Positions 31,635 through 32,780 of a stretch of 35,387 nt of DNA are shown here, piece by piece. Source of the DNA: Deltaproteobacteria bacterium (GTDB lineage Bacteria > JAMCPX01); contig JAMCVD010000109.1 of NCBI GenBank assembly GCA_023381995.1, positions 2,063 to 37,449 on the forward strand. Reading direction: 5' to 3'. Position 1 is the stretch's first letter. Every line of letters begins with the position of its first letter. The position numbers were made by a program, and so were the translations under genes. The notes under the pieces were generated by a model. That model had not been told where the DNA came from and ran no database searches. It saw only the letters and a list, made by a program, of their open reading frames with translations.

Positions 31635-32780
31635 CCGTCTTATAGTGTCTCTCGTTCTTGCTCACGGTAATAATAAGGGCTCTTATCCCAAAAATGATCA
31701 TGGGACTGATAGAACAAAAAGAAAGAGTGTTCGACACTGCGAAGGGAAACACATCCGGACTGCCTGCAATGCTTCCGTGGTACTCTGCGTGGACTGCTTC
31801 TCTCTCGCTATGGAAATACGGAGACGTTATGGGTCGTGACCCCCTTTACCGAAAAGAGCTTTGTTTTACGAGCAGAGGAGAAAACTCTTTCTTCATGATC
31901 ACAAAGGGGAGAGGAACCATAATAAGGACAGAGTAAATGAAGTACTAAAAGCTTATGAACTGCCTGAACTATCCGATTCTACCCTCATGAACTACTATCA
32001 GCGTGCAAAGAAGTATCCCCTCCGGCCAAGGCCGCCATAAATGATCTGATGATGTACTATCAGCAGGAAGGCTATGTACCTGCGCAGGAATTATTGGCCG
32101 CCCTGCGTGTGGTGAGCAGCATGCAGCTGCGCTGTATTGTCAACGCCGGTATAATGCTTGGAGAGAAGATTGACCAGGCACCTGACCTTCTTACCCCTAA
32201 AGAGCTGGAAGTATATAAGCATTATTTTTTCGATATCACCGGCTGGACTCACCTGGACTGGAACGACTACAAGAAGGAAGTAGCCCCGTACGAAAAGAAA
32301 GCCCTGCAGTATGCCCTGGAAGGTAAGATGCGGGACCTCCAGCTTGCGCTCCAGATAGTCCCTTCTTCGACAGAAGACGAGCAGCTACGGGATATGGGCA
32401 ATATAGCCTATAAGCAATATATGCGCATAGCAGCGAAGATCGGAGACGATACTCCGGCTAACCAACCGGATGGATTGCTCAAGCAGGTCAAACTATGGGC
32501 AGATATAGCCAGCAACATGCACAAGGCGAGAATGGCCGGACTTGGAACGGTGGTCAACGGCAATTCCTCCTCAGAAAATGCAGACCAGGGAAGGCTGCCT
32601 CCCTTCAGACTTATCTATATAGACCAGAACGGCAATATAGCAGTCAGGAAAACGAGGGAGGAATTGGAGGCGGATATGAAGAAGAAGCTGGAAGAAGATG
32701 AGCTCCGCTACAAAGCTCTGGAAGCACAATCATCGGGTGGAAGAAATGCAGATAGAGCCAATGGTGCAAAAAAGCCATAG
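31615..32780 (+). pseudogene. Disrupted phage-like gene, interrupted by MITE copy B and by an apparent frameshift; 3' part is the open frame 32049-32780
   Basis: MYKYPHNRLIVSLVLAHGNNK [MITE+TSD] DRVNEVLKAYELPELSDSTLMNYYQRAKKYP [shift at CCCC] ...PPAKAAINDLMMYYQQEGYVPAQELLAALRVVSSMQLRCIVNAGIMLGEK... Confidence 0.65.
31678..31918. mobile_element. MITE-like element, copy B (241 bp), inverted relative to copies A and C
   Basis: GGCTCTTATCCCAAAAATGATCATG...CATGATCACAAAGGGGAGAGGAACC; perfect 8-bp TSD ATAATAAG at 31670-31677 and 31919-31926. Confidence 0.92.

What the first reader, a model, noticed from the sequence alone, without database searches (positions are those of the whole stretch)
31678..31918. 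New-looking 241-bp MITE family with imperfect TIRs and 8-bp TSDs, three copies in 19 kb
Seen directly: copies at 16317-16557, 31678-31918 and 35195-35387+ share about 97-98% identity. The two complete copies are exactly 241 bp. The ends form an imperfect ~25-bp inverted repeat (GGTTCCTCTCCCCTTTGTGATCATG versus GGCTCTTATCCCAAAAATGATCATG). Established: ISL3-family insertion sequences typically have TIRs starting GGCTCTT-like and make 8-bp AT-rich target duplications. Inference: a non-autonomous element mobilised in trans by an ISL3-like transposase, recently active given the near-identity.
Basis: partly seen in the sequence, partly recalled or inferred. Interest (0 to 1): 0.82.

Follow-up and report, generated by a model that had tools for sequence, protein, structure and literature searches.

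The report
ISL3-ended MITE carrying captured intergenic repeat
The 241-bp repeat is a real, recently multiplied miniature transposon with at least 40 copies in this uncultured bacterium and the ends of a known transposon family (ISL3), a kind already described elsewhere; what is unusual is that its inside is an older repeat that related bacteria carry on its own in their gene gaps.

Summary
Confirmed: copies lie at 16317-16557, 31678-31918 and 35195-35387 (the last cut by the contig end). The draft genome holds about 54 places with element ends, roughly 40-54 insertions. Thirteen of 25 scored copies have perfect 8-bp, about 80% A+T target duplications, never 6, 7, 9 or 10 bp, against 0 of 600 mispaired controls. 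IS ends tie it to ISL3: a decayed ISL3 transposase gene in a relative ends at the same right TIR, and the left IS end, in a sister species, leads into the start codon of a 404-405-aa PF01610 transposase family. No complete ISL3 with these ends was found in the draft genome. ISL3 MITEs are already published (Microcystis, 187 nt), so the element itself is a new member of a known kind. New here: the ~176-bp interior shows no resemblance to the IS. It is a repeat restricted to this bacterial family, found in other genera without ISL3 ends, often at conserved positions. It is bounded by its own ~12-bp inverted repeat, whose arms change together, and at one locus it is inverted between two species of the genus. 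Best reading: ISL3 ends captured an old ERIC-like intergenic repeat and amplified it.

The parts
16317..16557 (-). complete MITE copy 1 (241 bp)
16309..16316 (.). 8-bp target duplication TTATATTT, left of copy 1
16558..16565 (.). 8-bp target duplication TTATATTT, right of copy 1
31678..31918 (+). complete MITE copy 2 (241 bp), the copy named in the finding
31670..31677 (.). 8-bp target duplication ATAATAAG, left of copy 2
31919..31926 (.). 8-bp target duplication ATAATAAG, right of copy 2
31678..31702 (+). ISL3-type left terminal inverted repeat, 25 bp
   Evidence: matches the IS left end at G001 contig ends
31703..31717 (+). 15-bp linker GGACTGATAGAACAA, kept in a decayed G001 copy
31718..31893 (+). 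captured core repeat, about 176 bp, bounded by its own ~12-bp inverted repeat
31894..31918 (-). ISL3-type right terminal inverted repeat, 25 bp (reads GGTTCCTCTCCCCTTTGTGATCATG on the - strand)
   Evidence: matches the end of decayed ISL3 genes in G004 and G000
35195..35387 (-). MITE copy 3, cut by the end of the contig
19132..19156 (+). possible solo relic of a left end (2 mismatches to the TIR pattern), low confidence

Best explanation
The 241-bp unit is a MITE: a non-coding element moved in trans by an ISL3-family transposase (PF01610) that recognises the two 25-bp ends and makes 8-bp staggered cuts in A+T-rich, mostly intergenic DNA. It is not an ISL3 copy with its gene deleted: only the 25-bp ends resemble the IS, and the other ~190 bp (15-bp linker plus ~176-bp core) show no resemblance to the IS ends seen. 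The core is an older ERIC-like intergenic repeat of this bacterial family that became enclosed between ISL3 ends before the two species of this genus split, then multiplied to at least 40 copies in this lineage. Shown: copies, ends, TSDs, the IS-end match, and the free-standing core in other genera. Inferred: the identity of the helper transposase, that it acts in trans, and the capture step.
For: TSDs of exactly 8 bp in 13 of 25 copies, 0 of 600 in the mispaired control. Site A+T is 80% versus 55% further out. The insertion point lies inside an ORF of 100 aa or more in 7 of 18 copies versus 84% expected. IS ends tied to PF01610 genes. A 297-bp composite with an extra 56-bp IS left end has its own perfect TSD AATATGCC, so the TIRs work in other combinations. 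The core occurs in G002, G003, G005 and G006; flanks of 29 such copies show no ISL3 end beyond chance (2 left, 0 right at p<=0.05), while two decayed G001 copies still do.
Against: No intact ISL3 with these ends in G000. Its only PF01610 hit is a 3' fragment with a different end (GGCTCTTCAGG...), and no G000 contig end was seen to run into such an IS, so the helper may be lost or unassembled (genome 84% complete). About 11 of 25 copies lack a perfect TSD, probably from recombination or misassembly between repeats. The IS end pieces come from relatives and relics, not from one whole element.
Confidence: 0.82

Rival explanations
1. The core is simply the inside of an ancient ISL3 MITE; the copies in other genera are old MITEs whose ISL3 ends have decayed.
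For: G001 has decayed copies with recognisable ends, and the core is multi-copy in much of the family.
Against: In genera g2 and g3 the core keeps sharp ends of its own, with 68-81% identity at shared positions and arms that change together. Flanking ISL3 ends are no better than shuffled sequence in 29 copies. Ends and core should decay alike.
Confidence: 0.12
2. The MITE is moved by another family with 8-bp TSDs and GG-type ends (such as IS1595 or IS6).
For: 8-bp TSDs and GG ends are not unique to ISL3 (general knowledge). G000 has one intact IS1595-type gene at C38.
Against: The sequence around that IS1595 gene shows no matching ends, whereas ISL3 remnants end exactly at the matching TIR.
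Confidence: 0.05
3. About the core only, and compatible with the best explanation: it is a structured RNA gene or mRNA element, and the ISL3 ends only spread it.
For: Structure scores well above shuffled and slid controls (16 pairs with two-sided changes, 0 of 500). Internal helices have some two-sided changes (5 pairs, 10 of 500 shuffles).
Against: Most covariation is in the terminal inverted repeat, where G-U (10) and A-C (13) mismatches are equally rare, as in DNA inverted repeats. The alignment was fitted to the structure. No Rfam family matches. The fold of the window copy is ordinary against shuffles (z about -1.5).
Confidence: 0.3

Closest known systems
187-nt ISL3-associated MITE of Microcystis aeruginosa (PMC11448079)
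   Same: Short non-coding element, ISL3-type ends starting GGCTCTT, 8-nt direct repeats, about 30 copies, mostly intergenic.
   Different: Different sequence and host. Here the ends are 25 bp and the interior is a separate repeat that exists without the ends in sister genera.
ERIC / IRU elements of enterobacteria (review PMC10969869)
   Same: Clade-restricted intergenic imperfect palindromes of 100-200 bp, tens of copies or more.
   Different: No sequence comparison with ERIC was run. Here one lineage has the repeat enclosed in ISL3 ends with TSDs.
ISL3 insertion sequences (PF01610)
   Same: Ends and 8-bp TSDs; relic genes and full-length metagenome relatives of 404-405 aa.
   Different: The element has no transposase gene and shares only about 25 bp at each end with the IS.
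Porphyromonas gingivalis MITE containing a minisatellite (PMC4596501)
   Same: A MITE whose interior is described as something other than IS remnant (title and abstract only).
   Different: A tandem repeat rather than an independently dispersed intergenic repeat.

Membership tests
MITE | short, non-coding, multi-copy with terminal inverted repeats | tested here: met
   241 bp, at least 40 copies, 25-bp imperfect TIRs
MITE | target-site duplications of constant length | tested here: met
   8 bp in 13 of 25, none of 6, 7, 9 or 10
ISL3-derived MITE | ends shared with an ISL3-family IS | tested here: met
   right end at PF01610 relic in G004, left end before start codon in G001 and G000 C58
ISL3-derived MITE | complete autonomous ISL3 with the same ends in the host genome (helpful, not strictly defining) | tested here: inconclusive
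   not found: only a C-terminal PF01610 fragment with another end, but the genome is 84% complete and IS copies are easily lost in assembly
ISL3-derived MITE | mobilised in trans by the ISL3 transposase | not testable with these tools
   needs a transposition assay
ISL3 internal-deletion derivative (one origin of MITEs) | interior derived from the IS by deletion | tested here: not met
   IS left end differs from the MITE after 25 bp; core stands alone in other genera
ERIC-like intergenic repeat (for the core) | clade-restricted, intergenic, imperfect palindrome with many copies | tested here: met
   8 of 9 genomes of the family and none of 89 outside it; terminal stem
ERIC-like intergenic repeat (for the core) | sequence homology to ERIC | not tested
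   only analogy is claimed
Inverton (for the core) | segment bounded by inverted repeats found in both orientations | tested here: met
   one locus, between species
Inverton (for the core) | flipping within a population by a recombinase | not testable with these tools
   needs reads; none available

The most novel reading that the evidence does not exclude
The core is a functional, invertible or structured intergenic element kept by selection across a whole bacterial family, and in this lineage a transposase hijacked it, spreading a regulatory module to dozens of new gene borders.
Probability: 0.25. Interest if true: 0.68.

Novelty: new variant of a known kind. Interest (0 to 1): 0.45.

Why it matters
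Where MITE interiors come from is usually unknown or assumed to be IS remnants. Here an independent, older intergenic repeat can be traced in sister genera without the transposon ends, so capture of a host repeat by IS ends can be tested directly. The free-standing repeat, with arms that change together and one clear inversion between species, is one for which I found no description and is worth its own study.

Tried and rejected
IS1595 as helper: its locus shows no matching ends. C100 ISL3 fragment as parent: different end. Core as known RNA: no Rfam match. Core as coding sequence: the most open reverse frame is broken by stops or frameshifts in many copies and there is no clear three-base periodicity. 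Exact empty site for window copy 1 in G001: the region carries other inserted DNA there, so only absence of the MITE could be seen. Plasmid, phage and viral collections: no match. TSDs for the free core in other genera: none seen in flanks. First RNAalifold on the sequence-only alignment gave no structure, probably because fragments were included.

Full report
OBSERVATION. Copies 1 and 2 are 241 bp, in opposite orientation, with perfect 8-bp duplications TTATATTT and ATAATAAG. Copy 3 is cut by the end of contig C39, in which the window lies. The source genome (G000, 2.10 Mb, 134 contigs, 84% complete) gave 40 scored matches. A TIR pattern gave 83 hits in 57 places, 24 of them with more than one end; contig-end halves may be two sides of one insertion, so I estimate 40-54 insertions. 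The pattern read backwards gave none in G000. Many contigs end inside the element, as expected of a repeat in a short-read assembly.

TARGET SITES. Of 25 copies scored on both sides, 13 have perfect 8-bp duplications and none has 6, 7, 9 or 10. Pairing the left flank of one copy with the right flank of another gave 0 of 600. One further relic (C66) has AAATAAGG on both sides once its mutated ends are set by eye. Sites are about 80% A+T, and the insertion point falls inside an ORF of 100 aa or more in 7 of 18 copies against 84% expected. Copies lacking a duplication probably reflect recombination or misassembly between repeats (inference).

THE IS. PF01610 in G000 gives only a C-terminal fragment, whose end is of another ISL3 type. 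The link comes from relatives. In G004 (same family) a frameshifted PF01610 remnant reads ...YGFRDPYNYVVAIFYGCANLPALE* and its stop codon overlaps TIR GGTTCCTCTCCCATCTGTGATCATT. G000 itself has a 3' remnant ...YNYVVAIFHSCANLPMST* running into GGCTCCTCTCCCATTTGTGATCATG at C131. In G001 (same genus; MAG DBS2-1.bin78) two contigs break 125 bp inside a left end GGCTCTTCTCCCAAAAGTGATCATGCCATATAGGGG..., ending at a ribosome-binding-site-like stretch and ATGCGT. A relic of it in G000 at C58 continues ATGCGTATGGAAACATATATCAGAAAAAGC. A search with the read-through C-terminus of the decayed gene found 404-405-aa PF01610 proteins on IS-sized contigs, up to 86% identical over that part; the one closest in both ends starts MRMETYIRKS and ends CANLPTPT. 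So both ends belong to one ISL3 group. A composite with a 56-bp IS left end attached to a whole MITE has a perfect TSD of its own at C74.

THE INTERIOR. After 25 bp the IS left end and the MITE differ completely. The next 15 bp are a linker, also seen in a decayed G001 copy, and the following ~176 bp are homologous at 70-76% to repeats in other genera of the family. A sequence model finds the core in 8 of 9 family genomes (27 scored in G000, 27 in G005, 7 in G003, 6 in G002, fewer elsewhere) and in none of 89 others. Those copies start and stop sharply at the core's own inverted repeat AAGGAAAGAGTT...AACTCTTTCCTT. Their flanks hold no ISL3 ends beyond chance and no obvious target duplications. 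Several stand at the same place between the same genes in different genera (G002-G005 twice, G001-G005 once), with 73-81% identity there. The simplest history is that the core was an old chromosomal repeat, became enclosed by ISL3 ends in this genus, and then spread. How it became enclosed is not shown.

WHAT THE CORE MAY BE. The terminal stem shows changes on both sides in 11 of 12 pairs. Whole-structure controls are clear (0 of 500), but the alignment was fitted to the structure, and the internal helices alone give weaker support; mismatches in the terminal stem show no strand preference. At the acyl-CoA dehydrogenase-menG border the core is present in G000, G001 and G005. The genes are collinear, but in G000 the core is inverted relative to both others (89% identity to G001 when turned round), with the breakpoints at the inverted repeat. 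There the arms differ between species yet remain complementary (GGAGTAAGGGCC versus GGAGGAAGGGCC). This fits recombination or template switching between the arms at DNA level, and does not exclude an RNA role. Gene names at this locus are my reading of the translated ends.

NOVELTY. ISL3-type MITEs with GGCTCTT ends and 8-nt repeats are published (PMC11448079). This family is new in sequence as far as the collections searched here show, and its captured interior makes it a variant of that kind. The host belongs to a family whose nearest other held relatives are related only at domain level; I did not identify its phylum.

Noticed in passing
L186 1780-1960 (G000 C118), L120 1480-1659 (G001 C15), L209 779-959 (G005 C28): Free core between an acyl-CoA dehydrogenase gene and a menG/ubiE-like gene, inverted in G000 relative to G001 and G005.
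   Followed up: partly
L144, L147, L157, L158 (G005): A second small repeat (ACCCCGTTAG...CTAACGGGGT) lies beside or inserted in several G005 cores.
   Followed up: no
window 22000-34000: G+C falls from about 0.57 to 0.41-0.48 downstream of tRNA-Ser (22509-22599); the stretch holds a DNA methylase (27793-29052) next to an MjaI-type restriction enzyme (29039-29677), and looks like an acquired island.
   Followed up: partly
window 16180-16268: Another repeat just beside MITE copy 1, 88-90% identical to several places in G001, most of them near contig ends.
   Followed up: no
L032 (G004 C63), L040 (G004 C52): 98-99% identical MITE pieces at contig ends in a MAG of another genus; the C63 flank is not found at high identity in G000. 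Recent transfer or a binning error.
   Followed up: partly
L067 (G000 C7), L068 (G000 C74): Composite elements: 56 bp of IS left end joined to a complete MITE; the C74 one has its own 8-bp duplication.
   Followed up: yes
L031 1-560 (G000 C100): Fragment of another ISL3 group with end GGCTCTTCAGG..., next to what look like further transposase fragments.
   Followed up: no
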